In this document: piece after piece, positions 57 to 20,123 of the stretch
Layout: the number at the start of each line of letters is the position of its first letter
How positions within the stretch are numbered: position 1 is the first letter of the stretch
Source of the DNA: Oscillospiraceae bacterium
Lineage (GTDB): Bacteria > Bacillota > Clostridia > Oscillospirales > Ruminococcaceae
DNA: 64,000 nt
Assembly: GCA_017427265.1 (NCBI GenBank)
Contig: JAFRTG010000032.1
Location: forward strand, 62,001-126,000
Reading direction: 5' to 3'
Program-made: the position numbers and the translations under genes
Notes under the pieces: model-generated
The model's database searches: none
The model's input: the letters and a program-made list of their open reading frames with translations, nothing else
Told to the model about the DNA's origin: nothing

Positions 57-668
57 TTACAGAATATTCGCCTTCTCGAAGTGCTTCCGGAACAGCTTTC
101 TGCTGAACAGGACGCCGAGAAGCGCGGCTGCTGCCGTGGCAGCGATCATGGCGATCAGCACCCAGCCGGGTGTCATGGCCCGGACTCGGTCACAGAATTC
201 CGCGCTCATGCCGCGGTCAAGATTGCTTTTGAAATATGCCTCGCGCATAATCCAGATCGGCAGGAAACCGCCGAGCAGATTCTGCGAAAACGCCAGATAG
301 CTGAGCGTATTGGCACCCCAGCTCCTGTAGCGTCCGAGTGCGGCAAAAATCTCGGCAAGCACCGCCGCGATGATCGCAACGACAATCACAATCCAGATGT
401 TGCCCATTGCCAGAAGAAATGCGCCCGGCAGAATGCCCGCAATCATGATCGGTCCTGTGATCTGTGTTTTCGCAACCATCAGCATGAACACCGGCGCGCT
501 GAAGAATGCAATCAGAACCGGCATCAGCAGATACAGTACCGGAACCGGCATACAGATTGAGCCAAAGATCACAAAGATCACAAAATAAATTGAGATGAAA
601 ATACCCGCCGTGATAAAACGCTTGGATTTTTTTCCTTCCTGCCTGTCAATATGTTTCATTTCAGCCAT
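57..668 (-). CDS. Trep_Strep/MptD-type membrane protein (putative ECF transporter S component)
   Basis: The protein is about 203 residues and very hydrophobic, with five or six predicted membrane segments after a basic N-terminus. It resembles the Trep_Strep/MptD family, which is thought to act as the substrate-binding S subunit of energy-coupling-factor transporters and is often encoded beside a pair of half-ABC transporters, as here. An in-frame ATG at 689 overlaps the stop of the preceding gene, but a GGGGAG motif lies just before the ATG at 668, so I place the start there. It is the last gene of the operon visible in the window; any partner T or A subunit would lie beyond the left edge. 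The substrate is unknown; context suggests a metal chelate or operon product. The family assignment comes from sequence character and context. Confidence 0.75.
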   Translation of the reverse strand: MAEMKHIDRQEGKKSKRFITAGIFISIYFVIFVIFGSICMPVPVLYLLMPVLIAFFSAPVFMLMVAKTQITGPIMIAGILPGAFLLAMGNIWIVIVVAIIAAVLAEIFAALGRYRSWGANTLSYLAFSQNLLGGFLPIWIMREAYFKSNLDRGMSAEFCDRVRAMTPGWVLIAMIAATAAAALLGVLFSRKLFRKHFEKANIL

Positions 669-685
669 TTTCAAACACTCCCCTG

Positions 686-2449
686 TCAAATCGTCTGCCG
701 GCCGATATTCCAGCCGGCTGTCTGCTGCTGAATACTGAAGAGCTTGTCGTAAAGCCCGTGAGATGCCGTCAGGGAATCGTGCGTTCCGGATTCGGCAACT
801 CTGCCGTTCTCCATCACGATAATCTGATCGACATTCGTAACTGTCCGGAGTCTGTGCGCAATCACAAGAACCGTCTTGTTCTGCGTCAGACCGGAGATTG
901 CATCCTGAATCAGCACTTCATTTTCCGGATCGAGTGAGGCCGTGGCCTCATCCAGAATCACGATCGGTGCATTTTTCAGAAGCGCACGCGCGATTGAAAT
1001 GCGCTGCCGCTCGCCGCCGGAAACCGTATTGCCGTTTTCGCCGAGCAGCGTCTGATAGCCATCCGGCATTCTGCTGACGAACTCGTCGCAGCAGGCGAGC
1101 TTTGCCGCACGCATGACTTCTTCATCCGTCGCGTTCATGTTGCCGATTTTGATGTTATTGAATACCGTGTCATTGAACAGAATGACATCCTGAAATACGA
1201 CCGTGACATAATCTGTCAGATGCTCCGGATCAATGGAACGCAGATCCGTTCCGCCGATGCGGATTGAACCGTCCGTGACATCCCAGAAGCGCGAAATGAG
1301 CTTTGCAACCGTACTTTTTCCGCTGCCGCTCGGCCCGACCAGCGCCGTGATCTTCCCCTCCGGAATCCGGAAGTTCACATCGTGCAGCACCTCTGTTTCC
1401 TGCTGATAGCCAAAGCTGACATGATCAAAATCAATGTCAAAGCGATCCAGCGCGGTATCCTTGCTGCCTTCCATTTTTTCAATATTGGACAGCTCCATGA
1501 CACGCTCACTGCAAACCTGCATATGGAAAATCTCCGGCATCAGTGTCAGCGTCGTGATGATCGGGCCGTAGACACGCACCGCGATCATCAGCGAAATGAC
1601 CAGCGTCGAAAGCACGAGCGTACCGCCGGAAAAGAGCGTCACACCGGCATATACCGTCAGTGCAATGCCGGCCTGCAGCACAAACTGTGCGCCGGAAAGC
1701 AATACGCCTGCACCGAGCTCCATTTTAACAGAAACACGGCGCATTTCATCCAGCGCGTTTTTCAGCGCACTGAACCGGTCTGCATTCAGAAAACAGGACT
1801 TGATGATCTTAATGCCCGCAATGTATTCCTGTGTCTGCTCGGAGGCACGCAGCTTCGCATTGACCTTCTCACGGCTCATTCTGTCCTGTCTGCGGCGGCT
1901 GAGCAGAATAATCAGCACCGAAACCGGCAGCGTGATAAACAGTGCAAGCGCCATGCGCCAGTCAAAGAATGCAAACCCGATGCAGATCAGTGTAACAGAA
2001 ATGATATTTGCAACGAGCGGCGGCAGCACATGGCTCAGCGTATGCTCAATGACAGCACAGTCCGACATCATATTCGCAGTCAGCTCTGTCAGATTCTTGG
2101 AATTGAACACCTTCATCGGAAGCTCACGAATGATCTCCGCGATGCGGATGCGCATATCAGATGCTTCCAGATAGGAATTCACGTATGTTTTCCGGTAATC
2201 ATTCTTGCTCGCAAAAAAGATTCCGACAGTACCCGCAAGACCGATTGCGGCAAGAATCCAGATTTTTTTCCATGAGACCTCTTCACTTGTCAGAGGCTTT
2301 ATCAGCTCGACAAAGATCTGCACGGAGATGAACACCGGGATCATCATGGTAATATTGGTCAGCGTGCAGGCTGCAATGCCTTTTTTCAGCTCCCGGTATC
2401 CTCTGTCAGACAGATGAAACATTTTCTTCAGATTCAGCATATCAAGCAT
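686..2449 (-). CDS. ABC transporter, fused membrane and ATPase domains (YbtQ-like half)
   Basis: This 587-residue half-transporter has a six-helix exporter-type membrane domain (about residues 20-320) and a C-terminal ATPase domain. Walker A (GPSGSGKST), the signature VSGGERQ and Walker B VILDEATASLD are all intact. It overlaps the upstream ABC gene by eight bases, so the two probably form a heterodimer. Pairs of this architecture next to siderophore-type NRPS genes include YbtP/YbtQ of the yersiniabactin locus, which despite the exporter fold import iron-siderophore; other relatives export. Direction cannot be decided from sequence. The first ATG is used; a second one nine bases downstream is also possible. 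Confidence 0.9.
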   Translation of the reverse strand: MLDMLNLKKMFHLSDRGYRELKKGIAACTLTNITMMIPVFISVQIFVELIKPLTSEEVSWKKIWILAAIGLAGTVGIFFASKNDYRKTYVNSYLEASDMRIRIAEIIRELPMKVFNSKNLTELTANMMSDCAVIEHTLSHVLPPLVANIISVTLICIGFAFFDWRMALALFITLPVSVLIILLSRRRQDRMSREKVNAKLRASEQTQEYIAGIKIIKSCFLNADRFSALKNALDEMRRVSVKMELGAGVLLSGAQFVLQAGIALTVYAGVTLFSGGTLVLSTLVISLMIAVRVYGPIITTLTLMPEIFHMQVCSERVMELSNIEKMEGSKDTALDRFDIDFDHVSFGYQQETEVLHDVNFRIPEGKITALVGPSGSGKSTVAKLISRFWDVTDGSIRIGGTDLRSIDPEHLTDYVTVVFQDVILFNDTVFNNIKIGNMNATDEEVMRAAKLACCDEFVSRMPDGYQTLLGENGNTVSGGERQRISIARALLKNAPIVILDEATASLDPENEVLIQDAISGLTQNKTVLVIAHRLRTVTNVDQIIVMENGRVAESGTHDSLTASHGLYDKLFSIQQQTAGWNIGRQTI

Positions 2450-4247
2450 TTCCTCTTTTCATTTTCCAGCTCAGCGCCTGCGTATAGCGTGCCCACAGTT
2501 CACTGTATTTCCCGTTTTTCGCGAGCAGCTCCTCATGCCTGCCCTGCTCCGCGATCCTGCCGTTTTCCACGACAAGGATCCGGTCGGCATCGGTGACCGT
2601 CGAGAGTCTGTGCGCGATCATGATGACGGTCTTGCCTGCCATCAGGCGGCTTAGCGCCTTCTGAATCAGGAATTCGTTTTCAGGATCGGCAAATGCAGTC
2701 GCCTCGTCCAGTACAAGAATCGGAGAATCCTTCAGGATCGCCCGCGCGATTGCAACACGCTGAATCTCTCCGCCGGAAAATTTTACGCCGCTCTGCCCGA
2801 AAACAGTACGGTAGCCGTCAGGCAGACTCATGATGAATTCATGACACTGCGCCGCTTTGGCCGCAGCAATTACCTCATCCTCTGTCGCATCCGGTCTGCC
2901 CATACGGATATTCTCAAGAATGCTCTGCTTGAATAAATAGTTGTCCTGGAACACAAAGCTGACCATGTTCATCAGATCCTTTGTTGCAATCCTGCGGATA
3001 TCCGTCCCGCCGATCGTAATGCTGCCGCCATCGACATCGTAAAAACGAGGGATCATGTTTGCAACCGTGCTCTTGCCGCCGCCCGAAGGGCCGACAATCG
3101 CCGTGACCTGTCCGGCAGGAATCGTAAAGCTGATGCCGTCCAGTGCCTTGATATCCTTCTCATAGGAGAAGGTCACATTCTCAAAGCGGATCTCATAGTC
3201 ATGCGGTACCGCACAGCCGGATTCTTCTGTCAGCGGCTTTTCCGCCAGTACCTTGTCCATGCGCTCAATGCCGTTGGCTGTGTTCATGCTGTTGACCATC
3301 ACGTATACGACCTTCATCAGAATCGCTGCGATTGCCGGCACAAACAGCAGATAGAACAGAAAATCCGTGAGAAAGCCGCGGTAATCCGCCGCACGCTTTC
3401 CGACATAAATGCCCATCGGAATCAGGAACAGGTACATATTGTTCAGAGCCGATGTCAGAACCGCCATGGCATTCTCATTGCTCAGTGTATACGGGATCAC
3501 CGAGTCGGTATACTTCTGAATGGAATCATGCAGCCGTCTGAACGAGAACACCGTCTGATTAAAGGCCTTGACAACCGAAATACCGCGGACATATTCCACG
3601 GATGCATTGCTCATATCCTCCAGTGCATCCTGATATACATTCAGGAGCTCGGAGGTTTTCTGACCGCCGTTTGCAATTCCCTGCAATTCAAACGATACAA
3701 CAATCGCCGCAAATGTGACCAGTCCGAAGCGCCAGTCTACAGCAAACAGAATGATAATCGCAGTGACCGGTGCAACCATTGCCGCGACCATGTCGGGAAG
3801 ATCGTGTGCAATGAAGCCCTCAAGCTGTTCAATGTTTTCATCCATGATCTTTCGCAGCTTGCCGCTGCCTTCCCGGATATGAAAACCGATCGGCAGCTTG
3901 ACAATGTGCGAAGCGAAATCGAGTTTCAGCTGATACAGGGTTCCGTATGCTGCAACATGGGAGACCGCCAGCGCCCCGAAATACAGCACAATGTTCAGAA
4001 ATGTGCCGCCCAGCGCCAGCAGTCCGTAGCGAAGCATCAGATCCGTATCGCGGATGTCCGGATAGTACTGAATAATAAGTGCAAGAATTTTGTAGATCGA
4101 ATAGTATGGAATAAAGCCGGCCAGTGCAGCTGCCGCCGAGAGAATGACAGAGATCAGACATAGTCCCTTTCTGATTTTCGTCAGCTCCATCAAACGCGGC
4201 AGGCCTGTTTTATACGGCTTTTCCGGTGTTTCCTTTTTACTCGCCAT
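2442..4247 (-). CDS. ABC transporter, fused membrane and ATPase domains (YbtP-like half)
   Basis: This protein of 601 residues has the same layout as its neighbour: membrane domain about residues 20-320 and ATPase domain about 355-590, with Walker A GPSGGGKST, signature FSGGEIQ and Walker B LVLDEATAFAD. The divergent D-loop region (AFADPENE) is typical of one half of heterodimeric transporters of the siderophore type. A longer frame opens at 4307, but GGAGGAC stands directly before the ATG at 4247, giving the start MASKK. It probably pairs with the ABC protein encoded at 686-2449 and moves the product, or a metal complex of it, across the membrane. Confidence 0.9.
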   Translation of the reverse strand: MASKKETPEKPYKTGLPRLMELTKIRKGLCLISVILSAAAALAGFIPYYSIYKILALIIQYYPDIRDTDLMLRYGLLALGGTFLNIVLYFGALAVSHVAAYGTLYQLKLDFASHIVKLPIGFHIREGSGKLRKIMDENIEQLEGFIAHDLPDMVAAMVAPVTAIIILFAVDWRFGLVTFAAIVVSFELQGIANGGQKTSELLNVYQDALEDMSNASVEYVRGISVVKAFNQTVFSFRRLHDSIQKYTDSVIPYTLSNENAMAVLTSALNNMYLFLIPMGIYVGKRAADYRGFLTDFLFYLLFVPAIAAILMKVVYVMVNSMNTANGIERMDKVLAEKPLTEESGCAVPHDYEIRFENVTFSYEKDIKALDGISFTIPAGQVTAIVGPSGGGKSTVANMIPRFYDVDGGSITIGGTDIRRIATKDLMNMVSFVFQDNYLFKQSILENIRMGRPDATEDEVIAAAKAAQCHEFIMSLPDGYRTVFGQSGVKFSGGEIQRVAIARAILKDSPILVLDEATAFADPENEFLIQKALSRLMAGKTVIMIAHRLSTVTDADRILVVENGRIAEQGRHEELLAKNGKYSELWARYTQALSWKMKRGNA

Positions 4248-4261
4248 TTCGTCCTCCAATA

Positions 4262-4759
4262 TCACGGTGTATTTGTCTGCTTCGTGATGACCTTCACCAT
4301 CAGACATTCATTGACATTCCGGCGAAATAATCCGTCGAAGTGATTGACTACCTCATAACCGTTTTTGCGGTAAATCTCAAATGCACGGTCATTGAAATCT
4401 GCAACCAGCAGATAGGCTCTTGTGCGCAGTGCTCCCAGCAGCCGCAGGCAGTCCTGTTCAAACGCCTGTAGCAGCTTTCTGCCGATTCCGGTATGCTGCT
4501 GATCGCTTCGCACAACGATCATATGCAGATACGGGAAAGAACGGAACATTCCGCGTGCCTGAAACCAGATAAATCCGACAGGCTGATCTGCCTGATCGGC
4601 AGCTACCAGAAAGCTGTCCTGCACAACAGCCTTTTCCAGTGCATCTGCAATCATATGCCGGTTCGGGTAGTAAACTGTTCCGAGACGGCTCTCAGCCAGC
4701 ATATCGCCGCAGGCCTGCATGTCCTCCGGCTGTGCGTCTCTGATTCGTATCTGCTCCAT
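4262..4759 (-). CDS. GNAT-family N-acetyltransferase
   Basis: This 165-residue single-domain protein has a GNAT fold. The acetyl-CoA binding motif A is visible as QHTGIGRKLL around residues 78-87, followed by the usual NGYE segment near the C-terminus. It lies between the carrier protein gene and the ABC pair in the biosynthetic operon. It could modify an amino group of the product or precursor, or give self-protection. AGGGGG precedes the ATG. Substrate unknown. Confidence 0.85.
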   Translation of the reverse strand: MEQIRIRDAQPEDMQACGDMLAESRLGTVYYPNRHMIADALEKAVVQDSFLVAADQADQPVGFIWFQARGMFRSFPYLHMIVVRSDQQHTGIGRKLLQAFEQDCLRLLGALRTRAYLLVADFNDRAFEIYRKNGYEVVNHFDGLFRRNVNECLMVKVITKQTNTP

Positions 4760-5041: not shown

Positions 5042-6064
5042 TTATTTGAGAATATCGCTGAGCGAATATCCCATTTTGGCAAGCGGCGGAATCAGATCGG
5101 TATCCTCAATCGGCGTACTGATGATTTCCAGTGCGCGCTGCCGCGAGAGCTCGCCGGCACGCACCATATCGCTCAGCTCTGTCTCATGCTGTGCATATCC
5201 GAACTGCTTCATCGCCAGATACTGTGCAACATAATTGAAGGAGCAGTTCGAGGATTTGTCCGGCCAGCTCCGCTTCGGAAGCGTAAAGCCGAGCTTTTCC
5301 GTGATGAGACTGAGAATCTCGCCTTCATTCCATTCAATGTATTTGAACGGCGAAAGCTGAACGATATCGCCGTAATGCTCACGGAAATATTTTGGCTGAT
5401 TGCTGTACATTTCTGTCAGCTCAGCATATTTGTCATCCTGAGAAAGAATATCAATGATATTCCGGTCAGATTCCTCATAGATCCAGAACAGTTCAAAATT
5501 CCGGATATACTGCTGTCCCTTCGTGTAACCGCCCAGCACAAGCCGGATGCCGTTCTGCCGGCACACATCCCGCACTGCCTTGTCGATCAGTGCATGGCAC
5601 ACTCTGCAATAATAGATTTTCTTTCCGGATTGCAGGCACTTCTGAAAAATGTCCAGCACATCCGCCGTCTTGAATACAACCAGATCAACGCCGAGCACAT
5701 CTGTCGCATTCCGCACATTGTGATACATCTCCTCCAGTGCAAAGCCGTTGTCAATGAAAACGGCCAGCGGCTTCAGATGCAGAATCTCCTTTGCAATGTA
5801 CAGCGTCATGATACTGTCCTTGCCGCCGGAAACGCTGACGGCACAGTCATATTTTCCGGCGTCCTTCGTAAAGCGTGCGACCTTCTTCTTCAGCAGATCA
5901 AGCCGTGCTTCCGGCGAAAGGCCGTCGATGCCGCCGCCCTTTTCCTCAAGCTGCCGGTGCTTTGTGCAGATCGGACAAAGCCCGTTTTCATTCAGCGGAA
6001 TATAACCTTCTGTTTCAGGCAGCACGCAGCATTTGCAGCGTTTTCTTTCAACATTATAGTTCAT
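5042..6064 (-). CDS. PP-loop ATP pyrophosphatase (N-acetyl sugar amidotransferase/AANH type)
   Basis: This 340-residue protein has the PP-loop signature SGGKDS at residues 79-84, so it should adenylate a carbonyl or similar oxygen to prepare it for attack by nitrogen or sulfur. The N-terminus has clustered cysteines (C10, C12, C13, C30, C33) and a second CxxC pair near residue 150, which suggests a bound metal. The nearest family is the WbpG/N-acetyl sugar amidotransferase group of adenine nucleotide alpha hydrolases; a distant relative (CtaC-like) acts in thioamide formation on carrier-bound chains in closthioamide biosynthesis. No glutaminase partner is encoded in the window. Placed beside a carrier protein and a carrier ligase, it most likely amidates or thionates a carrier-bound intermediate. 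That role is inference. Confidence 0.8.
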   Translation of the reverse strand: MNYNVERKRCKCCVLPETEGYIPLNENGLCPICTKHRQLEEKGGGIDGLSPEARLDLLKKKVARFTKDAGKYDCAVSVSGGKDSIMTLYIAKEILHLKPLAVFIDNGFALEEMYHNVRNATDVLGVDLVVFKTADVLDIFQKCLQSGKKIYYCRVCHALIDKAVRDVCRQNGIRLVLGGYTKGQQYIRNFELFWIYEESDRNIIDILSQDDKYAELTEMYSNQPKYFREHYGDIVQLSPFKYIEWNEGEILSLITEKLGFTLPKRSWPDKSSNCSFNYVAQYLAMKQFGYAQHETELSDMVRAGELSRQRALEIISTPIEDTDLIPPLAKMGYSLSDILK

Positions 6065-6082: not shown

Positions 6083-7264
6083 TCACAAATCAACGTAGGA
6101 TGCAATCTCATCGCGGGTCTGCTGATCCCATTTTGAGACATCCAGCCCCTTCTGTGAAAGCAGCGCATAGGTCAGCCGCTCAATGCCGAACGCAAAGCAG
6201 GCTGTGTAGCAGAACGCACCGTTTGAAGATTTGATTGCATAGGGTTTGGAGAAGTGCGTTCTGTGCAGATTGGCAGATGCACAGGCGATGTACAGATCAC
6301 GCGCAGGAATCTTCCATTTGAATTCGCGCTTGGAATCGCCGAGCATCTGAAAGAGCCTGAGTTTTTTGTAGTTGCTCGCAAAAAACGAATCATTCGCCGT
6401 ATCGAGCTTGACATTGACCTGAAATGTGTCCGCCCAGAATTGCCAGAGTGCTCTGCTGCTTTCAATCCGCTCCGAGCATTGCTGCGGCGTTCCGAGGAAT
6501 ACATATTCCAGCATGTAAAACTCATTCAGCCGTGCCAGCTCCAGCACATTGTCGCCCTCATTGCGGAAGCATTTGCCGGCGATCATGAAACACAGCGGCT
6601 TTTTCTCATCAACGATGGTATTCTCAAAAATCGAATAGACAGGAACACAGGCGGCATTGCGCAGGACATTCACCGGCTGCTTCATCTCCGAGAAGATGCC
6701 GTCCGCTTTCGTACCGAAAGCAGCAAAGCGATCCAGCACATCCAGATCGTTTTTCATCACAGTCTGGAACATGATGTAATGCGGGAATGTCTCGAAATAT
6801 CTGCCCTTTTCAAAATTGTCAATCGGATAAAGCACGGGGAATTCATATTCACGCACATCTTCAAAATTCTGAAACGCAAATTCGCGGATCTTTTTGTCGA
6901 AGTAGCGGAACACCTTGAGGAACAGCCCGCTGTAGGCATAAACGCCCTTGCAGATCTCCATCACATCACCGCGGCTGACCAGCTCCGGAAAAACGGTTTC
7001 CGTATTGAGCGGCGTTCTGTCTGTATGATCGACCAGCGTTTTGATGTTCGATTCCCGGTCGGTAATCTTTCCGCCGTGAATCATCTCAAGCAGCCGGTCG
7101 ATTTTGCTGCGGACGTCCTGCTCTTTTTCGTCAAAGCAGCTGACGCCGATCTCTCTGCCGCTGACCTCGATTTTCTGGATATCCGGTGAAATATAGGAAA
7201 GCATATCGGAAATCACAGCAAAGTCGCTGTCCGTCTCATTGGAAAAATCATATCTGCAAATCAT
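6083..7264 (-). CDS. Class II aaRS-like amino acid:carrier-protein ligase
   Basis: This 393-residue protein is a class II aminoacyl-tRNA synthetase catalytic domain without any tRNA-binding domain. Motif 2 appears as CFRNEG (from residue 232) followed by LNEFYMLEYV, and motif 3 as FGIERLTYAL. Cys206, Glu253 and Cys356 have the spacing expected for the Cys/Glu/Cys zinc site of the SerRS-like aa:CP ligases known from Bradyrhizobium and relatives. Those enzymes activate a small amino acid and transfer it to the phosphopantetheine of a dedicated carrier protein. The N-terminus is about 75 residues longer than in those enzymes. The gene overlaps the NRPS stop codon by four bases and precedes the PP-loop and carrier genes. 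The amino acid is not predictable by eye. Confidence 0.85.
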   Translation of the reverse strand: MICRYDFSNETDSDFAVISDMLSYISPDIQKIEVSGREIGVSCFDEKEQDVRSKIDRLLEMIHGGKITDRESNIKTLVDHTDRTPLNTETVFPELVSRGDVMEICKGVYAYSGLFLKVFRYFDKKIREFAFQNFEDVREYEFPVLYPIDNFEKGRYFETFPHYIMFQTVMKNDLDVLDRFAAFGTKADGIFSEMKQPVNVLRNAACVPVYSIFENTIVDEKKPLCFMIAGKCFRNEGDNVLELARLNEFYMLEYVFLGTPQQCSERIESSRALWQFWADTFQVNVKLDTANDSFFASNYKKLRLFQMLGDSKREFKWKIPARDLYIACASANLHRTHFSKPYAIKSSNGAFCYTACFAFGIERLTYALLSQKGLDVSKWDQQTRDEIASYVDL

Positions 7265-10560: not shown

Positions 10561-10787
10561 TCTGTCATCCTTTCCGCAATGCCCGATACCGAGCCGAGCT
10601 CATAAAGCTCTGCCAGACTGATTTTCCTTCCGAATGTCCGGCGCAGTTCCATCTGCAGCTTCATCGCATCCATAGATGTGCCGCCGAGCTCCGTAAAGGG
10701 CTGCTCCTCACCGAAGGATTCCGGCAAATCCCGCAAAATGCCGGTAAAGATATCTCTGATTCTTTCAGATGCTTCGCTTTTACTCAT
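10557..10787 (-). CDS. Peptidyl carrier protein
   Basis: A free-standing carrier protein of 76 residues with the motif LGGTSMDAMKL, Ser38 being the phosphopantetheine site. Its stop overlaps the NRPS start (ATGA), and its own start overlaps the end of the stand-alone cyclization gene by eight bases. It probably works with that cyclization protein as a split module. Confidence 0.92.
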   Translation of the reverse strand: MSKSEASERIRDIFTGILRDLPESFGEEQPFTELGGTSMDAMKLQMELRRTFGRKISLAELYELGSVSGIAERMTE

Positions 10788-11886
10788 TTTCCCACACCTC
10801 AGTTATCCTCTTGATATAATGCGCGAACTGCTCCCGAAGGACAGCCTCATCAAACAATCCGTCAGGATAAACCCAGTCCGCGCGCAGACCATGAATCGTT
10901 TCAAAAATCTGACAGTCCACCGCAACCTCCGGTGTCTGCGAGATCATATAGGATACGCCGCCGAGCAGACTCTCAAACATCACCGGAACAAGCGGCACAT
11001 TCTCTGTATACGAAAACACAAACGCAGGCAGATCGCCGGACGGCTTGCTGTTCATCTGTTCCCCGTTCTGCAGCGCCGTGAGCTGTCTTTGCGTATTGTG
11101 CATCAGCGTCCGGATATCAGCACCCGTATCATAAAACAGCGGCACAAACAGCAGCCCGGTCGCATCCGTGACCTTGCCGGCTCTGTCTGCAATGCGGAAC
11201 AGCGGTACATTCAGCACAAAATGCTTTTGCTCCGACATTCTGCTCACCGCCTCACCGAACAGTGTCAGCAGTGCTGCAAATATACCGGTGCCGTCCTGCA
11301 GGCTCTTTTCCCTGATCCGCCGCAGCTCCGGTGCAGAAATCTCAGCCGTCAGCGCCTTGTACCGGCACCCGGACATCTCCGCCGGATTGTGCAGATACGA
11401 CGGATTCGGATAGGTCAGTGTCCTTGCTGCGTAAGCCTGTGCCAGCCGGTCAAGAATGACCTGAAAGCCGTAAACATCGCACATCAGCAGATCCAGATCG
11501 AAAATGAGCTTTGCTCGGCGGTCAGGCATCTGCACAAGCATCAGCCCGCAGAGATGACCTTCCTCTGCCCGCATTTTCCGATGCGAAAAGCTCTGCCGGA
11601 TTTTTTCAGTCTCCGCTTCGGCAAAATCCGCAGTTTTCCCTGAAAAATCAAAATACAGCACGCGATCCGTCAGCGGGGTATCCGCAAGCTCAGCGGTGCC
11701 GTCATTCCGGATACGCTGCCGCATCGCCGGCTCATGCTGCACGACATCCGACCATGCTTCCTGAAGGATACCGCAGTCAATTTCAGCGCCGTCAAATTCC
11801 AGATATACATGACATGCTGTTCCGCCGAGATGCGACTGTTTTTCGCGTCCGATCAGATAGGCTTCCTGCACAGCCGTCAGTTTCAT
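10780..11886 (-). CDS. Stand-alone NRPS heterocyclization-type condensation protein
   Basis: This 368-residue protein starts with LTAVQEAYLIGR and continues with a GG..CHVYLEFDG segment, a beginning typical of Cy domains in yersiniabactin and pyochelin synthetases. Its core motif (residues 132-140, DLLMCDVYG) matches DxxxxDxxS except that the last Ser is Gly. It is about 60 residues shorter than usual Cy domains. It could build a second heterocycle or only condense. It is co-translated with the carrier protein downstream and the aryl-AMP ligase upstream (four-base overlap). Confidence 0.85.
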   Translation of the reverse strand: MKLTAVQEAYLIGREKQSHLGGTACHVYLEFDGAEIDCGILQEAWSDVVQHEPAMRQRIRNDGTAELADTPLTDRVLYFDFSGKTADFAEAETEKIRQSFSHRKMRAEEGHLCGLMLVQMPDRRAKLIFDLDLLMCDVYGFQVILDRLAQAYAARTLTYPNPSYLHNPAEMSGCRYKALTAEISAPELRRIREKSLQDGTGIFAALLTLFGEAVSRMSEQKHFVLNVPLFRIADRAGKVTDATGLLFVPLFYDTGADIRTLMHNTQRQLTALQNGEQMNSKPSGDLPAFVFSYTENVPLVPVMFESLLGGVSYMISQTPEVAVDCQIFETIHGLRADWVYPDGLFDEAVLREQFAHYIKRITEVWENE

Positions 11887-13442
11887 GATTGTTCCTCCCG
11901 TCCGAGCATTCGCAGCAGCTCGTTTTTATCAACCTTTCCGACCGGTGTAAGCGGCAGCGCATCCGTCAGCCGAAGCATGTCCGGCAGATAAAAATCCGAA
12001 ACCTGCTCACTTTTCAGAAATGCGTGCAGCTCCTGCAGTGTCAGCGGCTTCTCCGTCACCGCCCAGACACAGATTTTCTGTCCCAGCTCCGCATCCGGAA
12101 CACCGATCACGGCACACTCCAGCACATCGTCGGAGCGGCAGATCCACTCCTCCAGTGCAGCCGGCATAATCTTTTCACCGGCGCGGTTGATCTGCTCGCG
12201 CACCCGGCCGAGTATCCGGATATTGCCCGCAGGTGTACGCAGAGCACGGTCACCGGTGAGGTAATAACCCTCGCTGTTGAAGGAGCGGCGGTTCGCCTCC
12301 GGATTCTCATAGTATCCGGTAATCGTATACGGCCCGCGCACAATAATCTCACCCGCAGTACCGTCCGGAACATCATTGCCGTCAGCATCGACAATCCGGT
12401 ACGTATCCTCCGGCGCGGAAGGTGTCCCCTGATCGTGCCAGCGCACCGCTTCCGGTGCATCACGGTCTGTCATGAAGGTCATGCCTTCGCTCATGCCGAA
12501 TACCTGTATCACCGTGCAGCCCATCAGCCGCTCTGCCGCAGCAGCCTCCTCCGGCCTGAACATCGCACCGCCGACCATCACATACCGCAGCGACGATACA
12601 TCATCGTCAGCGAACAGATTCCGGTAACGGATACACATATTCACCAGCGCCGGAACAAGACTGGTAATCGTTGCGCCGTAACGCTCAACATTCGAGAAAA
12701 ACTCTGTCATATCCGGATATTTCTGCATTACAACCGTTCCGCCGCACATCAGCGTCCCGATGATTCCCGGCGTGCCGAGCGCAAAGTTATGCGCCGCCGG
12801 CAGAATATTCAGCATCACGCTTTTCTCCGAAAGATCCGCACGCAAAGCCGTCACATATGCATTGTAGAGATAATCACGGTGCGTGCGCGGAATCAGCTTC
12901 GGAATGCCGGTCGTACCGCCGGACAGCGAAAGAAACGCAAGGTCATCCGCAGACGGAAGTTCCGTTGCGGCTTGTTCGCGTTCCGATGCAGCGTCATCTT
13001 TTTCAGAGATCAGGGCTTCCAATTCGTCCTCAAAAAACAGACGGTCCGTGCAGCCGTACTGCTCTGCAAGCTGACGGGCATTTTCTTCATAGCTGTATTT
13101 CAGATAGCGCCGTGTGAAGATCATCGCGGCAGGCTCTGCATTCCGGCAGATTCCGCCGATCACAATTTCCTTATGCGCAGGCAGGCACAAAATCGGAACA
13201 GCGCCGATGCGCGACAACGCAAAGAAAACCGCCGGAAACCAGACGGTGTTGGTCATTTGCATGATAACGCGGCAGCCGCGGACAATGCCCCGTTTCCGGA
13301 ACATGTCCGCCAGCGTCAGCGCTTTTTTGTATAACTGCCGGTAGCTCCATGCAGTCTGACCGTCCGTTACCGCGATATGCTCCTGATACCGCCCGCTCCA
13401 TTCCCGGAGCGCTGCATCCAGTGTCAGATTCGCAGTTCCCAT
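11883..13442 (-). CDS. Aryl-acid AMP ligase (DhbE/EntE-like)
   Basis: An AMP-forming ligase of 519 residues. The nucleotide motif SGGTTGIPK (174-182) is followed by LIPRTH, and the substrate-site segment LPAAHNFALGTPG (214-226) closely resembles the AHNYPLSSPG segment of 2,3-dihydroxybenzoate and salicylate ligases such as DhbE, EntE and YbtE. The catalytic lysine is in the C-terminal GKVDKNELL. The aryl-pocket Tyr and Ser are Phe and Thr here, so the acid may differ. No chorismate-derived aryl acid genes (isochorismate synthase, EntA, EntB, salicylate synthase) occur in the window. It probably loads a carboxylic acid starter onto one of the free carrier proteins. Confidence 0.87.
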   Translation of the reverse strand: MGTANLTLDAALREWSGRYQEHIAVTDGQTAWSYRQLYKKALTLADMFRKRGIVRGCRVIMQMTNTVWFPAVFFALSRIGAVPILCLPAHKEIVIGGICRNAEPAAMIFTRRYLKYSYEENARQLAEQYGCTDRLFFEDELEALISEKDDAASEREQAATELPSADDLAFLSLSGGTTGIPKLIPRTHRDYLYNAYVTALRADLSEKSVMLNILPAAHNFALGTPGIIGTLMCGGTVVMQKYPDMTEFFSNVERYGATITSLVPALVNMCIRYRNLFADDDVSSLRYVMVGGAMFRPEEAAAAERLMGCTVIQVFGMSEGMTFMTDRDAPEAVRWHDQGTPSAPEDTYRIVDADGNDVPDGTAGEIIVRGPYTITGYYENPEANRRSFNSEGYYLTGDRALRTPAGNIRILGRVREQINRAGEKIMPAALEEWICRSDDVLECAVIGVPDAELGQKICVWAVTEKPLTLQELHAFLKSEQVSDFYLPDMLRLTDALPLTPVGKVDKNELLRMLGREEQS

Positions 13443-13443: not shown

Positions 13444-13695
13444 TCACTGCTGCATTTTGCGCACGATTGTCTCCGTCATCGAATTGACAGAGACAGGCTC
13501 AGCCAGATTGACCTCATCTGCCAGCGTCACCTGAAAATAATCCTGGCAGGAAAGGTAAAGCTGTACGATAATGATGCTGTCCGCGCCGAGATCCTCATAG
13601 AGCAGCGCATCCTCATCAATCTCACTCTGCTCCAGTCCCATCAGCTCATGCAGCAGATCCTTGATTTTTGTTTTGATTTCTTCTCTTGCAGCCAT
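13444..13695 (-). CDS. Acyl carrier protein
   Basis: A free-standing carrier protein of 83 residues with the motif EDLGADSIIIVQL; Ser40 is the phosphopantetheine site. It lies between the two AMP-forming ligase genes, with one base of overlap to the upstream ligase and one base between its stop and the next start, so it is probably the acceptor of one of the two adenylated acids. Confidence 0.93.
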   Translation of the reverse strand: MAAREEIKTKIKDLLHELMGLEQSEIDEDALLYEDLGADSIIIVQLYLSCQDYFQVTLADEVNLAEPVSVNSMTETIVRKMQQ

Positions 13696-15320
13696 TACGA
13701 TTTCCGTTTTCCTTTCATTGTAATCTCGCGCATCGCATCCTCAAGTTTGCTGCGGGATTCGATTTCATTGAGCATATCCTTCTTGGAGACCTCACCCTTC
13801 AGCGTTTTCGGCAGCGGATCGCGGAACACCATCACAGCGGCAAGGCGCTTGTAATGCGGCAACTCTCCGTTTCGCTTCTGAATCGCCCGGAACAGCTCAG
13901 ACTCCTCAAAGTTCTCATAGCTGTTCGCCGTATACAGCACCAGAACCGGCTCGTCGTCAATGCCGATAAAGCAGAACTGATCGGTCATGGTTTCCAGCAG
14001 GGAGAAATCCTCCTCCAGCTCCTCCGGATAGATGTTCTCGCCGGAATCGTTTACGATCATATTGCTGCATCTGCCCTGATAAAACAGGATGCCGTCCTTG
14101 ATCGTAAAGACATCGCCCGTGCGGTACATCTCGCCGAACCGTTCGATACGCGGAACAAATTCTCCGTGCTCCAGAATGCCGCTGTAAATGCACTTGTTGC
14201 CCAGAACAGCAAGCTCGCCCGTGCCTTCATCCGTGATCGAGCCGTCCTCCTGAACAATCTTTGTGATGTGGCCGTTCATCGCCGCACCGGAATACTCGCC
14301 GGGGATTCCCATATCAGGCTCCGTATTGAAATACCCGATGCTGACACAGCCGCCGATCTCGGTTCCGCCGTAAGCATTGGAGAGGCAGAAGCCGGTAGAA
14401 TTGACTGTATTTTTGAAGTCGGCATCAATCCGCGCACCGCCGATCATACCGTGCGTGAACTGCTCACCGAAGAATTCCCGGAATGTTTCCGGAGAGACTG
14501 CGCCGTACTTGTTCTGATAAATGCGGAAGATCGCCTTCCAGAGCGCAGGAACACCGTAGGTAAACCAGATCCGTTCGCGTTTGATCGCTTCCGTCAGTTC
14601 CAGAACGCCGTTGTTTTTCGGGAATACCATCGTGCAGCCCTGTCCCCAGAAGATCATCGGAACCTCAAAGCCGAAGATATGCCGCATCGGAAGCGTCACC
14701 AGCACGCGCGTCTCATGCGTCGGAATGTTCCACAGCGACTGCACAACCTCCGGAGATGCAAACGTGAAATTCTTGATGTTCTTCTGAATCTGCAGGATGA
14801 TTTCCGCATTGAACACGATCGTTTTGGCCGCACTCGATGTACCGGATGTGCAGACACACATCTGCGTTTCCCAGCAAACATGTTCCGGCTTGCCGGTTTC
14901 GGCAGCGGTCACATCCGCAAAGGAAATATCCCGCAGTCCTTCCGTTTCAAGCGGCGCATAGCTGATGATTGCAGCAAGATTGCCCATTTCCATCACACGC
15001 TTCAGACCGTTTCCGGCAATGTTCTCATCCACGCTCATGACCTTGTAGCCGATCATTTCCAGCGCCAGAAAAACCGGAAGCCAGTATACATGTGTTCTGT
15101 GGCGCAGCGCGATCCATCTGCCCTTTTCGATTCCCGCAAGCTCTTTTTCCAACGCTGCCGCAATAGCCTCGATCTTTGCGATATATTCATCACGGCTGAA
15201 GATGCGTTTTTCGTTGTTCTCATAGCATTCGGCAATCGGATAATCATTCGGGAATCCGAGAATCGAATGTGCGTAAAGCTCCTCAAAGGTATGTTTTACA
15301 TTGTTTCTGTCGTACTGCAT
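13695..15320 (-). CDS. AMP-forming acyl ligase
   Basis: This 541-residue member of the adenylate-forming family has the nucleotide motif CTSGTSSAAKT (157-167), NAYGGTEIGG in the A5 region, YRTGD and a C-terminal KGEVSKK carrying the probable catalytic lysine. It has no carrier domain. It is only remotely like the aryl ligase next to it and closer to the general acyl-CoA/acyl-ACP ligases found with free carrier proteins. It likely charges the carrier protein encoded at 13444-13695 with a second acid. The Shine-Dalgarno sequence is weak. Confidence 0.85.
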   Translation of the reverse strand: MQYDRNNVKHTFEELYAHSILGFPNDYPIAECYENNEKRIFSRDEYIAKIEAIAAALEKELAGIEKGRWIALRHRTHVYWLPVFLALEMIGYKVMSVDENIAGNGLKRVMEMGNLAAIISYAPLETEGLRDISFADVTAAETGKPEHVCWETQMCVCTSGTSSAAKTIVFNAEIILQIQKNIKNFTFASPEVVQSLWNIPTHETRVLVTLPMRHIFGFEVPMIFWGQGCTMVFPKNNGVLELTEAIKRERIWFTYGVPALWKAIFRIYQNKYGAVSPETFREFFGEQFTHGMIGGARIDADFKNTVNSTGFCLSNAYGGTEIGGCVSIGYFNTEPDMGIPGEYSGAAMNGHITKIVQEDGSITDEGTGELAVLGNKCIYSGILEHGEFVPRIERFGEMYRTGDVFTIKDGILFYQGRCSNMIVNDSGENIYPEELEEDFSLLETMTDQFCFIGIDDEPVLVLYTANSYENFEESELFRAIQKRNGELPHYKRLAAVMVFRDPLPKTLKGEVSKKDMLNEIESRSKLEDAMREITMKGKRKS

Positions 15321-17124: not shown

Positions 17125-17127
17125 GTT

Positions 17128-18003
17128 TTACGCTCCGTTTCCGGCCATAAATTCCTGCGCGACCCTGTTCACAATCGGCACGCAGTTTTTATAGCCATCT
17201 ACCATAATCAAATGCCCGCCGTCGATTACCTCGATCCGGAAGTCCTTGCCCGCAACATGTTCCCAGCAGCGCATATCCTCCAGCGGTGTCATGGTATCGC
17301 GGTCGCCTGCCAGAACCGTGACATCCGTATCCACTTTGAAATATTCGCGCGGATTGTTCTGATAGCTGGATACGATCGTCTGGTCAACATCAAACAACGA
17401 CATGGTATGATTGGCAAATTCAAAGGATTTCAGCTGATTGACAATATCCGCGCTTTCCATTTCCTCATCGGAATAAATCTGCTCCGGGCGAACCGGAACA
17501 TATTTGCCGTTTTCCGCATAATTCCGGAAGCACTGTTCGGTATACTTTTTGCAGAATGCTTCAATCATTCCGCGGTCCTCAAAAACATGCTCCGGGAAAT
17601 AGCGTTCCAGCACCTCGATCATCTCCGGCTGCCGTCTGACATCAGAGAACAGCGAGGTTGCATAGGTATTGCCGTCCGGCGGATCACTGGCGCAGTAGAA
17701 CACATGAAACGGCCGCTTCAGATTGTTCTGAATAATGCGGCGGTACAGCTCATAGCTCGCCACCGAACCGAAGCAATACCCCATAATCATGTAATCGTCA
17801 TCCGGCTTCAGCTGTGTCAGCAGATTGCGGTAAAGATCGTCCGCAACCTCATCCATTGTCCGGAAGGGCTGCTCCTTCCGGCGCAGCCCGCGCCCCGCAA
17901 TCTCAAGCAAGCAGAGCTTGATCTGCGGATCAAGCAGCTTTGCCCACGGCAGATACGCCAGTGCCGAAGCAGCACCGCCCGGCACACAAAACAGTTTCAC
18001 CAT
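17128..18003 (-). CDS. Thioesterase-like alpha/beta hydrolase with Cys nucleophile
   Basis: This 291-residue member of the NRPS thioesterase family starts with FCVPGGAAS. The nucleophile motif is GYCFG, placing Cys77 where a Ser is usual; the acid (AGDRD) and His (DGGH) positions look intact. Cys-type thioesterase domains are known from some assembly lines that form strained rings or amides. Since the operon also encodes a normal Ser-type editing thioesterase, this one may be the product-releasing enzyme. That assignment is inference. Confidence 0.88.
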   Translation of the reverse strand: MVKLFCVPGGAASALAYLPWAKLLDPQIKLCLLEIAGRGLRRKEQPFRTMDEVADDLYRNLLTQLKPDDDYMIMGYCFGSVASYELYRRIIQNNLKRPFHVFYCASDPPDGNTYATSLFSDVRRQPEMIEVLERYFPEHVFEDRGMIEAFCKKYTEQCFRNYAENGKYVPVRPEQIYSDEEMESADIVNQLKSFEFANHTMSLFDVDQTIVSSYQNNPREYFKVDTDVTVLAGDRDTMTPLEDMRCWEHVAGKDFRIEVIDGGHLIMVDGYKNCVPIVNRVAQEFMAGNGA

Positions 18004-18041
18004 TCTTGTAGTTTTCCTTTCTGATACGCCTCTGAAATGCT

Positions 18042-18827
18042 TTACAGATAGCTTGCATTCAGATAACCGCCGTCCACTGCGATTGCCTGCCCCGTGATAT
18101 ACGATGCGGCATCTCCTGCGAGAAACAGGATCACGCCGTTCATCTCCCCGCGCATACCCGGTCTGCCGGCAGGAGCCTGACGGTTATATGTGGCTAACAC
18201 GATCTTATTATCAAATATATCCGAGGTCATTTCGCTTTCAAAGAGTCCCGGACACACCGCATTCACCGTAATGCCTTCGCGCATATAAGTCACAGCAAGC
18301 CCGGTTGTCAGGCCGCAGACAGCCGCCTTGGAAGCATTGTAAGCGTGGCGCGGAACAGTCTGTGACGCAACAAATGCATTGATAGATGCAACATTGATAA
18401 TGCGTCCCATCCGGCGCACCGTCATAAACGGCAAAACTGCGTCGCACATATTGGCCGTTCCCGTCAGATTCACCGCGATCTCCTTCTGCCATTCCGCTGC
18501 ATCCATCTCACCGACCTTGACCTTGCCGGTCACGCCGGCGCAGTTGACCAGCACTTCGATTGTGCCCTCAAACAGTTCGGCAGCCGCTTTGACAGCCGAT
18601 GCCGTCTGTGCCCTGTCGCTGACATCGCAGACAGCATACCCCGTTTTGACGCCGTATGCTTTCAGCTCTTCCGTCAATCCGGAAAGGCGCTCCCCGCGTC
18701 TGCCGATGAGAAAGACATTCGCACCGGCTTCAGCAAAGCCGCGGCTCACATCCGCACCGATTCCGCTCGTGGCACCGGTTACAATGACATTTCTTCCTTC
18801 AATGCAGAATATATTCCGGTATTCCAT
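18042..18827 (-). CDS. Short-chain dehydrogenase/reductase
   Basis: A 261-residue classical SDR: cofactor motif TGATSGIG at residues 17-24, NCAG in place of the usual NNAG, a Ser in NVASINAF and the YNASK catalytic pair. It resembles gluconate 5-dehydrogenase and FabG-like enzymes rather than EntA specifically. As the second gene of the operon it may reduce a keto group on a precursor. The substrate is unknown. Confidence 0.87.
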   Translation of the reverse strand: MEYRNIFCIEGRNVIVTGATSGIGADVSRGFAEAGANVFLIGRRGERLSGLTEELKAYGVKTGYAVCDVSDRAQTASAVKAAAELFEGTIEVLVNCAGVTGKVKVGEMDAAEWQKEIAVNLTGTANMCDAVLPFMTVRRMGRIINVASINAFVASQTVPRHAYNASKAAVCGLTTGLAVTYMREGITVNAVCPGLFESEMTSDIFDNKIVLATYNRQAPAGRPGMRGEMNGVILFLAGDAASYITGQAIAVDGGYLNASYL

Positions 18828-18866
18828 TTTATCTCTTACACCCTCCTGTTCCCTCTATATCCCGGA

Positions 18867-20123
18867 TCAGGAAACCGGGAAAAATATGCCGGTCAGCAGC
18901 ACTGTCAGCGCCGTCAGAAGTGCCTGAATACCGAAGCCGTACCGCACATAATCACGGAAGCGGTACCCGACACGCACCGTCATGCCGATGAAGCCGCTCG
19001 AAAGCGGTGTCAGGACTGCCAGCCCGGCGCCCATTGTTACTGCAATCAGAAATGATTTCGGGTTCAGCGCATACAGCTCCGCGAATTTCAGTGCAAACGG
19101 CAGAACGATAATAACCGTCGTCGTATTTGCAATAAAATTGCTGATAACAACAGCCAGCAGCGTGAATGCCGCAAGCAGCAGCAGCGGACTCATGTTCTGC
19201 GGGATATGCTGCATCAGCCATTCGCAGATACTTTGAATATGCCCGCTCCGGTTCAGCTCTGACGCCATGCTCACACTGCAGCCCAGCCAGATCAGTATGT
19301 TCCAGTCTATTTTGGAAAACGCATTCTTCTGCTGAACAGCTCCGCCGAACATACAGATCAGCGCGCCGATCACAGATGCGACACCGACTGTCACAAAGCC
19401 CGTCACAAACAAAAACAGCATCACCGCGCCGGAAATCAATGTGACTGTGATTTTGCGGCGGTTCGGTGCAAAATCAGGCTGATCCGTTTCCGTATCGCAG
19501 GATGACGGTGCAGCTTCACTCCAGAAGGAAGCGCTGCGCTTGCTCAGCACAAAGAAAATCCACAGCATTCCAGCCAGCAGAAGAATCAGCCCCATCGGCA
19601 GCATCTCAAACATGGAAATGCCGCTGCCGAGCGCATCCGAAGCCATAGATGATGCAATCAGGGTCGCAGGCGCACCGACAAGCGTACACTGCCCGCCCAT
19701 CACAGCACAGTAAATGACCGGAAGCGTGATGTTTTTCACTGCAATCTTCGGCGCAGAGCCGGCGATATGAATGCAAATAATCATCATCAATGCACATATC
19801 ACCTGATTATTCAGAAATGCAGAAAGCAGTGCCGCCGTCAGACCGGCAATTATAATCACAGAGCGTTCATTCCGCCCGGAAAGGCGTACAATCAGCTCCG
19901 ACGTCTTTGCGGATAATCCGCTTTCCTGAAACGCAATCCCGAAAATCTCCGTACCGAATACGATCAGAACGATGTCATTGGTAAAGCCTGCCATCATTTC
20001 AGACGGAGAGCATACGCCGCAGACAACCATCGCAATACACGCAGCCACCGAAACAGACGCCGCCGGAAACCGGTCCCAGATGAACGCAGCAACACATAGA
20101 ATAAGTATCAGCGCCAATTTCAA
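18867..20123 (-). CDS. SLC13/CitMHS-type permease
   Basis: A membrane protein of 418 residues with about 11 hydrophobic segments and two repeated halves, of the ion transporter superfamily that includes SLC13 carboxylate carriers and ArsB. Conserved-type segments include NNQVICALMM, GGQCTLVGAP and SNFIANTTTV. It is the first gene of the biosynthetic operon and may bring in or put out a carboxylate building block or the product. The start is TTG; an ATG AGA TAA mini-frame with a purine-rich leader ends one base before it. Confidence 0.8.
   Translation of the reverse strand: MKLALILILCVAAFIWDRFPAASVSVAACIAMVVCGVCSPSEMMAGFTNDIVLIVFGTEIFGIAFQESGLSAKTSELIVRLSGRNERSVIIIAGLTAALLSAFLNNQVICALMMIICIHIAGSAPKIAVKNITLPVIYCAVMGGQCTLVGAPATLIASSMASDALGSGISMFEMLPMGLILLLAGMLWIFFVLSKRSASFWSEAAPSSCDTETDQPDFAPNRRKITVTLISGAVMLFLFVTGFVTVGVASVIGALICMFGGAVQQKNAFSKIDWNILIWLGCSVSMASELNRSGHIQSICEWLMQHIPQNMSPLLLLAAFTLLAVVISNFIANTTTVIIVLPFALKFAELYALNPKSFLIAVTMGAGLAVLTPLSSGFIGMTVRVGYRFRDYVRYGFGIQALLTALTVLLTGIFFPVS

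What the first reader, a model, noticed from the sequence alone, without database searches (positions are those of the whole stretch)
57..20123. Undescribed-looking NRPS/carrier-protein operon mixing Cy domains, an aaRS-like carrier ligase and a PP-loop enzyme
About 18 same-strand, often overlapping genes encode two cyclization-type proteins, three free carrier proteins, two AMP-forming ligases, an aa:CP ligase, a PP-loop enzyme, a KAS III-like enzyme, two thioesterases, an SDR, a GNAT, an SLC13-type permease, an ABC pair and a Trep_Strep protein. The Cy domains, aryl-AMP-like ligase and YbtP/YbtQ-like pair recall the yersiniabactin/pyochelin type of metallophore, but the aa:CP ligase and PP-loop enzyme do not belong to those pathways. 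No phosphopantetheinyl transferase or aryl-acid synthesis gene is in the window.
Basis: partly seen in the sequence, partly recalled or inferred. Interest (0 to 1): 0.92.

Follow-up and report, generated by a model that had tools for sequence, protein, structure and literature searches.

The report
Iron-controlled gut-bacterial siderophore gene cluster
A gut bacterium carries an 18-gene assembly line, apparently switched by iron, that probably builds a small sulfur-containing iron-scavenging molecule in an unusual way, and close versions of it occur in other gut bacteria, one of them a named strain that could be tested.

Summary
In detail: 18 minus-strand genes (57-20123), 8 of 17 junctions overlapping, largest gap 39 bp. 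The operon runs on outside the window into ECF-transporter genes. Five relatives, including Lachnospira pectinoschiza M83, split it in two. A core recurs in all six loci: aaRS-like carrier ligase, two carrier proteins, PP-loop enzyme, KAS III (cut short in one), GNAT. An aryl/cyclization NRPS add-on occurs in 5 of 6; the sixth genome has no detectable condensation domain. The PP-loop enzyme carries the Fe-S cysteine triad of the closthioamide thioamide synthetase CtaC, complete in none of five sugar-context paralogues, so sulfur insertion on a carrier protein is likely. The KAS III lost its FabH-type His in 6 of 6. All six promoters carry the palindrome GTTAG-N6-CTAAC (4 exact, 2 with one mismatch), the core of the equibactin DtxR-type operator; exact copies sit close upstream of feoA or feoB in 4 of 6 genomes, more loosely in 2. 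Best reading: an iron-regulated siderophore operon combining a CtaC-like sulfur-inserting core with a yersiniabactin-like module. New variant of a known kind; product, substrates and regulator unproven.

The parts
18867..20123 (-). SLC13/CitMHS-type permease, first gene of the operon
   Evidence: CitMHS 200 bits, Na_sulph_symp 70 bits
18042..18827 (-). SDR oxidoreductase
   Evidence: adh_short_C2 190 bits; 48% identical copy in the L. pectinoschiza cluster
17128..18003 (-). type II thioesterase (TE2)
   Evidence: PF00975 82 bits
16390..17124 (-). type II thioesterase (TE1)
   Evidence: PF00975 105 bits
15351..16367 (-). KAS III-like acyltransferase (core); Cys119 and Asn295 kept, FabH His replaced by Ser
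13695..15320 (-). LigA, divergent AMP-forming acyl ligase (core)
   Evidence: PF00501 90 bits; nearest solved relatives 4-coumarate-CoA and acyl-CoA ligases
13444..13695 (-). free carrier protein CP1 (core)
   Evidence: PF00550 32 bits; attachment Ser in 6 of 6
11883..13442 (-). EntE/DhbE-like aryl-AMP ligase (add-on); pocket read as N F T S M G V T
   Evidence: TIGR02275 444 bits, below its cutoff 724; PDB DHB- and salicylate-AMP ligases; pocket read by eye
10780..11886 (-). standalone cyclization (Cy) domain (add-on), DLLMCD motif
   Evidence: best PDB hits PchE and HMWP2
10557..10787 (-). free carrier protein CP2 (add-on), attachment Ser kept in 3 of 3
   Evidence: PF00550 52 bits
7261..10560 (-). 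NRPS Cy-A-CP-(degenerate CP) (add-on); A-domain pocket read as D M F N M G V V
6083..7264 (-). aaRS-like amino acid:carrier-protein ligase (core); predicted Zn ligands C206, E236, C328
   Evidence: NF005479 149 bits, below its cutoff 357; PDB 4h2w 2.9e-31; the three residues invariant in 6 of 6
5042..6064 (-). PP-loop (AANH) enzyme, predicted Fe-S-dependent thiotemplated sulfur insertase (core): SGGKDS 79-84, C153, C156, C274
4770..5018 (-). free carrier protein CP3 (core), next to the PP-loop gene in 6 of 6 loci
4262..4759 (-). GNAT acyltransferase (core)
   Evidence: PF13508 45 bits; in all six loci
2442..4307 (-). ABC half-transporter, YbtP/IrtA-like
   Evidence: PDB 6p6i_A 371 bits (YbtP by its link to entry 8vsi, inferred), IrtA 324, YbtQ 282, Sav1866 266; eukaryotic tandem transporters score higher over two stretches
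686..2449 (-). second ABC half-transporter of the pair
57..689 (-). Trep_Strep membrane protein, predicted S component of an ECF transporter; EcfT and double ATPase follow outside the window (G000:C30:61242-61949 and 59728-61245)
   Evidence: PF09605 187 bits; CbiQ and two ABC_tran stretches
20337..20365 (-). sigma-70-like promoter TTGACA-17-TACAAT, 11 of 12 matches, TG before the -10
20158..20173 (.). operator palindrome GTTAG-N6-CTAAC, exact
20254..20269 (.). second operator copy, 1 mismatch

Best explanation
The operon makes, exports and recovers a small sulfur-containing siderophore under iron control. Core line: the aaRS-like ligase charges an amino acid (glycine or another small one; inferred) on CP3; LigA charges a second acid on CP1; the KAS III, having lost the FabH-type His, moves the CP1 acyl group to the CP3 amine instead of extending a chain; the PP-loop enzyme, with a [4Fe-4S] cluster, replaces an oxygen by sulfur on the CP3-bound product (thioamide, or a thiocarboxylate). 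Add-on: the EntE-like ligase loads an aryl acid on CP2, and the Cy domains with the NRPS add Cys (or Thr/Ser) and cyclize it. TEs edit or release, the ABC pair and the Trep_Strep-ECF transporter move the product, and a DtxR-type repressor at GTTAG-N6-CTAAC shuts the operon when iron is plentiful. Shown by sequence: gene set, motifs, conservation, operator and its feo association. Inferred: all substrates, which CP serves which enzyme, reaction order, product, regulator binding and transport direction.
For: Iron: operator (at most 1 mismatch) within 400 bp of the first gene in 6 of 6 clusters, against 5-17 of 2000 shuffles each. 68 exact sites in the six genomes against 16 for the reversed pattern. 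In G000 they precede both feoAB loci; in G399, G408 and G797 an exact site lies close to feoA or feoB. EqbA, a DtxR-like repressor whose binding is raised by Fe2+ and Zn2+, has the same core in its operator (PMC3672683). Peripla_BP_2, FecCD and ABC ATPase genes follow the L. pectinoschiza cluster. Sulfur: complete Fe-S triad in 6 of 6 core, 8 of 8 carrier- or ligase-context and 0 of 5 sugar-context PP-loops; CtaC activity falls when any of the three is changed (PMC6772006). Core independence: G399 has the core genes and no detectable condensation domain. KAS III His lost in 6 of 6, kept in two sister clusters in whose fetched stretches no PP-loop gene was found.
Against: The core PP-loops form their own clade, not inside CtaC's, and their best curated family is the sugar amidotransferase WbuX (130 bits against a cutoff of 203). 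No sulfur-mobilising gene is in the operon (none in the CTA cluster either). EqbA binding was also raised by Zn2+ and partly by Mn2+, and no regulator was shown to bind here. The feo link is loose in 2 of 6 genomes: about 2.3 kb downstream in G796, a 28-33% FeoB match in G397. 7 of 26 fetched site stretches matched none of my 15 query proteins. The operator has 1 mismatch in G399 and at the G408 cluster promoter. The A-domain pocket fits no Cys code fully and the EntE pocket fits none of the listed aryl acids. L022 has only a KAS III fragment and no LigA. The ABC proteins also score well in MsbA-type families.
Confidence: 0.6

Rival explanations
1. An ordinary aryl-thiazoline siderophore of the yersiniabactin/equibactin type; the aa:CP ligase, KAS III and PP-loop genes do minor tailoring or are unrelated riders.
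For: EntE-like ligase, Cy domains, HMWP2-identical Cys code in the G408 and L022 A domains, equibactin-like operator. Two gut isolates are reported with antiSMASH 'equibactin' clusters.
Against: The 'riders' are the part conserved in all six loci; the Cy/EntE/NRPS part is missing from G399. No thiazoline reductase-like family was seen among the 18 genes.
Confidence: 0.17
2. A thioamide copper or zinc chelator (chalkophore-like) or thioamide antibiotic, closer to closthioamide in purpose.
For: CtaC-like Fe-S PP-loop, carrier-protein logic; EqbA binding also responds to Zn2+.
Against: Operator shared with feoAB in the same genomes; FecCD-type genes beside the L. pectinoschiza cluster.
Confidence: 0.12
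3. The PP-loop enzyme is an amidotransferase (WbuX-like), giving an amide or amidine on the carrier-bound acyl group rather than a C=S group.
For: TIGR03573 is its best curated family; the only PDB sequence match is an N-acetyl sugar amidotransferase.
Against: Below the family cutoff; the Fe-S triad is complete in 6 of 6 core and 0 of 5 sugar-context enzymes; no glutaminase family among the 18 operon genes.
Confidence: 0.1

Closest known systems
Equibactin locus eqbA-N of Streptococcus equi (PMC3672683: abstract, passages and section 7 seen)
   Same: EntE-type aryl ligase, Cy-NRPS, type II TE, PPTase, YbtPQ-like ABC pair plus a second ABC importer, no aryl-acid synthase found, operator core GTTAG-N6-CTAAC
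   Different: no aa:CP ligase, PP-loop enzyme or KAS III named in the passages seen; has a thiazoline reductase and larger NRPS; its regulator gene is in the cluster
Closthioamide cluster ctaA-K (PMC6772006: text parts 1 and 2 of 3 read; cluster read in G555, L065)
   Same: free carrier proteins, AMP ligase, Fe-S PP-loop sulfur insertase acting on a carrier-bound substrate
   Different: uses ATP-grasp CtaD and peptidyl transferase CtaG where this one has an aaRS-like ligase and a KAS III; no operator was looked for there; PP-loop in another clade
Yersiniabactin/pyochelin synthetases (HMWP2, PchE)
   Same: closest solved relatives of the standalone Cy domain; aryl-Cy-A logic
   Different: here split into separate proteins, with an extra core line and no dedicated salicylate synthase found
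Amino acid:[carrier protein] ligase (PDB 4h2w)
   Same: SerRS-like by sequence, three aligned predicted Zn residues
   Different: about 100 N-terminal residues outside the matched stretch; below the NF005479 cutoff

Membership tests
aryl-thiazoline siderophore cluster (yersiniabactin/equibactin type) | aryl-AMP ligase of the EntE/YbtE family | tested here: met
   TIGR02275 444 bits though below equivalog cutoff 724; DHB- and salicylate-AMP ligases best PDB hits
aryl-thiazoline siderophore cluster (yersiniabactin/equibactin type) | Cy domains with DxxxxDxxS | tested here: inconclusive
   NRPS Cy has it (DGLYFDGES); standalone Cy has DxxxxD but Gly for Ser
aryl-thiazoline siderophore cluster (yersiniabactin/equibactin type) | Cys-activating A domain | tested here: inconclusive
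   Window DMFNMGVV: 5 of 8 positions seen in some Cys code of PMC3672683 Table 1; G408 and L022 DLYNMSMI match HMWP2 8 of 8
aryl-thiazoline siderophore cluster (yersiniabactin/equibactin type) | salicylate or DHB synthesis genes | tested here: not met
   one chorismate-binding enzyme in 5 of 6 genomes and none detected in 1; equibactin likewise needs supplied salicylate
aryl-thiazoline siderophore cluster (yersiniabactin/equibactin type) | thiazoline reductase | tested here: not met
   no such family seen among the 18 genes; no dedicated model was run and the rest of the genome was not searched
CtaC thioamide synthetases | SGGxDS plus CxxC...C Fe-S triad | tested here: met
   6 of 6 core proteins
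CtaC thioamide synthetases | falls in the CtaC clade | tested here: not met
   own clade 100/100; CtaC groups with G480_NRPS
CtaC thioamide synthetases | O-to-S exchange on a carrier-bound amide | not testable with these tools
   needs enzyme assay
WbuX N-acetyl sugar amidotransferase | scores above TIGR03573 cutoff | tested here: not met
   130.4 against 203.2 bits
amino acid:[carrier protein] ligase | scores above NF005479 cutoff | tested here: not met
   149 against 357 bits
amino acid:[carrier protein] ligase | Zn-binding Cys-Glu-Cys (identity of the ligands recalled) | tested here: met
   C206, E236, C328 aligned with 4h2w and invariant in 6 of 6
KAS III (FabH) condensing enzymes | Cys-His-Asn triad (recalled) | tested here: not met
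   His replaced by Ser/Thr in 6 of 6; Cys kept in 5 of 5 that cover the site, Asn in 6 of 6
ECF transporter | S, T and A components together | tested here: met
   Trep_Strep, CbiQ and a double ABC ATPase in G000; that Trep_Strep is the S subunit is inferred from gene order
DtxR-regulated iron operon | operator shared with known iron genes of the same genome | tested here: met
   feoAB in G000; close in G399, G408, G797, looser in G397 and G796
DtxR-regulated iron operon | repressor binding in presence of Fe2+ | not testable with these tools
   needs EMSA

The most novel reading that the evidence does not exclude
A previously unrecognised class of siderophore from strict anaerobes: an NRPS-independent carrier-protein core (aaRS-like ligase, His-less KAS III, Fe-S PP-loop sulfur insertase) builds a thioamide or thiocarboxylate chelating unit, suited to ferrous iron in the gut, which is released as such in some species and joined to an aryl-thiazoline unit in others.
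Probability: 0.4. Interest if true: 0.88.

Novelty: new variant of a known kind. Interest (0 to 1): 0.72.

Why it matters
How strict gut anaerobes compete for iron is little known, and few of their siderophores are described (recalled). If right, this gives a testable iron-scavenging pathway in gut clostridia, a second biological use for carrier-bound sulfur insertion besides closthioamide, and a wider clostridial iron regulon defined by one operator. It would also show that an aaRS-like carrier ligase and a KAS III without its His can stand in for NRPS modules.

Tried and rejected
Considered and rejected: a toxin or defence role (no such family among the 18 genes apart from generic P-loop matches of the ABC ATPases; Pfam; PADLOC was not run); a mobile or phage origin (no relative of the aa:CP ligase in viral contigs; the 20 plasmid matches listed of 94 are 28-33% identical over 71-78% of the protein; I did not look for integrases). 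Internal promoters and terminators: 16 and 18 found against shuffle means 14.0 and 17.8, so no evidence of a split operon, nor proof of one transcript. Structure prediction of the aa:CP ligase and KAS III could not be run. Literature: I saw listings, of which one search showed 12 of 25, 9 of 10, 20 of 544, 12 of 17 and 10 of 16; no listed title described this cluster. In two announcements (PMC6328661, PMC6675978; passages only) antiSMASH names an equibactin cluster in gut isolates; whether these hold the core genes was not tested.

Limits: relatives were sampled, not exhaustive: aa:CP ligase in 5 of 394 order genomes including the own one, the other four at 17.6-21.4 bits; 4 of 30 genus genomes; 6 of 391 class genomes at 1e-12; 3 of 299 genomes of the family of G796 at 1e-50; 5 loci from a scan by two short peptide patterns. 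The sugar- and carrier-context labels are my own reading of neighbouring genes, and one of the carrier-context set (G782) also has sugar-type neighbours; I used 13 of the 20 non-core places. Two of the five sugar-context proteins keep one of the three cysteines. The protein in G555 is called CtaC because D77, S78, C154, C157, C284 and the gene order fit the paper; the species name is recalled from the genome length. G399 is 95% complete, so a missed condensation domain is possible.


Full report
Observation. 8 of 17 junctions overlap and the largest gap is 39 bp. A promoter TTGACA-17-TACAAT (11 of 12) lies at 20365-20337, upstream of the first gene; internal promoter- and terminator-like sites do not exceed shuffles. 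The window is G000:C30:62001-126000, and the gene run goes on outside it with EcfT (107 bp after Trep_Strep) and a double ATPase. The KAS III probably starts at 16367. The second carrier domain of the NRPS looks degenerate: Ser in the window, Asn in G397 and L023.

Relatives. The aaRS-like ligase is rare. It was found in 4 of 30 genomes of the genus and, beyond the own genome, only as weak matches in 4 of 394 genomes of the order. A scan of named genomes gave five loci: Ruminococcus sp. UBA4275 (the contig of G397), two Oscillospiraceae MAGs (the contigs of G408 and G399), a Lachnospiraceae MAG (L022) and Lachnospira pectinoschiza M83 (L023). G397 holds all 18 genes in order at 75-95% identity. 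L. pectinoschiza holds 17 of the 18 (no SLC13 match in the fetched stretches) with the KAS III at 73%, a PPTase beside it, EcfT- and double-ATPase-like genes, and after them a Peripla_BP_2 protein, a sirohaem-type protein, a FecCD permease and an ABC ATPase. G408 and L022 have a CP-Cy-A-CP NRPS, an EntE-like ligase, a TE and a PPTase beside the core. G399 has PPTase, GNAT, aa:CP ligase, KAS III, PP-loop, CP3, LigA, CP1, the ABC pair, Trep_Strep and EcfT- and double-ATPase-like genes, and no NRPS or EntE match in the fetched 40 kb; no condensation domain was detected in its whole genome (95% complete). So aa:CP ligase, CP3, PP-loop, KAS III, CP1, GNAT and transporters recur in all six loci; LigA in five. 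In L022 the KAS III and one ABC gene are cut short and joined, and LigA is missing; in a MAG this may be a deletion or an assembly fault.

The PP-loop enzyme. It has SGGKDS at 79-84, C153/C156 and C274. In CtaC of closthioamide, changes of D77 or S78 abolished and changes of C154, C157 or C284 diminished activity (PMC6772006, text parts 1-2 of 3). A PP-loop protein in G555 with exactly these positions, in a cta-like gene order, served as CtaC. The triad is complete in 6 of 6 core proteins and in 8 of 8 others that I classed as carrier- or ligase-context, and in 0 of 5 sugar-context ones, two of which keep one cysteine. In the tree the core is one clade (100/100) of uncertain position and not inside CtaC's. 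It scores below the WbuX cutoff. I therefore infer sulfur insertion on a CP3-bound substrate by a separate subfamily; the atom added is not shown.

KAS III and ligases. FabH-type Cys is kept in 5 of 5 core proteins that cover the site and Asn in 6 of 6, while the His of the HQAN motif is Ser or Thr in 6 of 6; G795 and G804, which carry an aa:CP ligase and a KAS III but no PP-loop match in the fetched stretches, keep the His. Acyl transfer rather than Claisen condensation is inferred. The aa:CP ligase matches PDB 4h2w, keeps the three residues that I recall as its zinc ligands, and has about 100 N-terminal residues outside the match. The window's A domain reads DMFNMGVV, L. pectinoschiza DMFNIGVL, and G408 and L022 DLYNMSMI, the last identical to HMWP2's Cys code in Table 1 of PMC3672683. 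The EntE-like pocket reads NFTSMGVT, unlike the DHB, salicylate and 3-hydroxypicolinate codes there; only its Ser278 recalls SnbA. These codes were read by eye from the alignments. Five of six genomes have a single chorismate-binding enzyme and one has none detected, so a dedicated isochorismate or salicylate synthase is unlikely; equibactin also needs supplied salicylate.

Iron control. The leader has GTTAGACAATGCTAAC and a 1-mismatch copy. All six clusters have a copy with at most 1 mismatch within 400 bp of the first gene (4 exact; G399 and G408 with 1 mismatch), against 5, 17, 13, 15, 11 and 8 of 2000 dinucleotide shuffles. The EqbA operator of equibactin contains GTTAG-ATGTAT-CTAAC, and EqbA (DtxR-like) binding is raised by Fe2+ and Zn2+, less by Mn2+ (PMC3672683 passages). 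The own genome has 12 exact sites against 1 for the reversed pattern; their neighbours include feoA and feoB (two loci), another Trep_Strep gene, a MacB/FtsX-type ABC pair, a DUF2325 gene and enolase. The five relatives have 15, 10, 9, 11 and 11 sites against 4, 3, 4, 0 and 4. A site lies within about 150 bp of feoA or feoB in G000, G399, G408 and G797. In G796 (L. pectinoschiza) three sites precede a same-strand run with feoA about 2.3 kb on, and in G397 the FeoB match is only 28-33% and about 460 bp away. Seven of the 26 fetched stretches had no match to my 15 query proteins. A DtxR-family gene lies at G000:C30:52662-53051, about 9 kb from the window's start and near enolase; a second one is at C25. 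That either binds these sites is inferred.

Transport. The ABC protein at 2442-4307 scores 371 bits to PDB 6p6i_A (taken as YbtP from its link to entry 8vsi), 324 to IrtA, 282 to YbtQ and 266 to Sav1866; eukaryotic tandem transporters score higher over two stretches, and MsbA-type families also match well. In S. equi eqbHIJ was needed for import. Direction of transport here is not shown.

Conclusion. The operon is best read as an iron-regulated siderophore system in which a carrier-protein core related in logic to closthioamide is joined to a yersiniabactin/equibactin-like module. It works like both and is a full member of neither: several defining features fail (membership table). The product, its substrates, the sulfur step and the regulator all need experiment.

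Noticed in passing
G000:C30:53291-53306 (L011 9291), G399:C5:16910, G408:C49:21881, L141 2916: The iron-type operator lies about 150-170 bp before enolase in 4 of the 6 genomes (not located in the others' fetched stretches), so enolase may belong to this iron regulon; in G000, G399 and G408 enolase also neighbours the cluster.
   Followed up: partly
G795 (L036-L037) and G804 (L081-L082): A sister gene set: aa:CP ligase, KAS III with the His kept, AMP ligases, carrier proteins and an ABC ATPase with a large permease-like protein, with no PP-loop match in the fetched stretches. Its product is unknown.
   Followed up: partly
G000:C7:109414-124797 (open frame 5404 aa), also G397:C117: A very large NRPS with four condensation matches in one open frame of the own genome, about 15 kb from the Sfp-like PPTase at C7:139695-140384.
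   Followed up: no
L022 9070-9140: One ABC gene is cut short and runs into the middle of the KAS III gene; LigA is missing. Deletion or assembly fault in a MAG.
   Followed up: partly
G000:C30:55581-56381 and G399:C5:18507-19340: An LCM-type methyltransferase gene near both clusters (Pfam for G000 only), with a 1-mismatch operator just before it in G399; G796 has a 25% relative beside an operator site (L120).
   Followed up: partly
G000:C48:50418-51020 and G397:C126: Another Trep_Strep gene with an exact operator and an ABC exporter-type gene near it, and no biosynthesis genes noticed in the fetched stretch: possibly uptake of foreign siderophores.
   Followed up: no
window 20622-22574 (+) and 22828-24651 (+): Divergent neighbours: an LRR protein with a dockerin domain and a 2-oxoacid (indolepyruvate-type) oxidoreductase; not part of the operon.
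   Followed up: no
G555:C1:1170179-1171051 (L067): A PP-loop match inside a 2150-aa open frame in an NRPS context, possibly a PP-loop domain fused into a synthetase.
   Followed up: no
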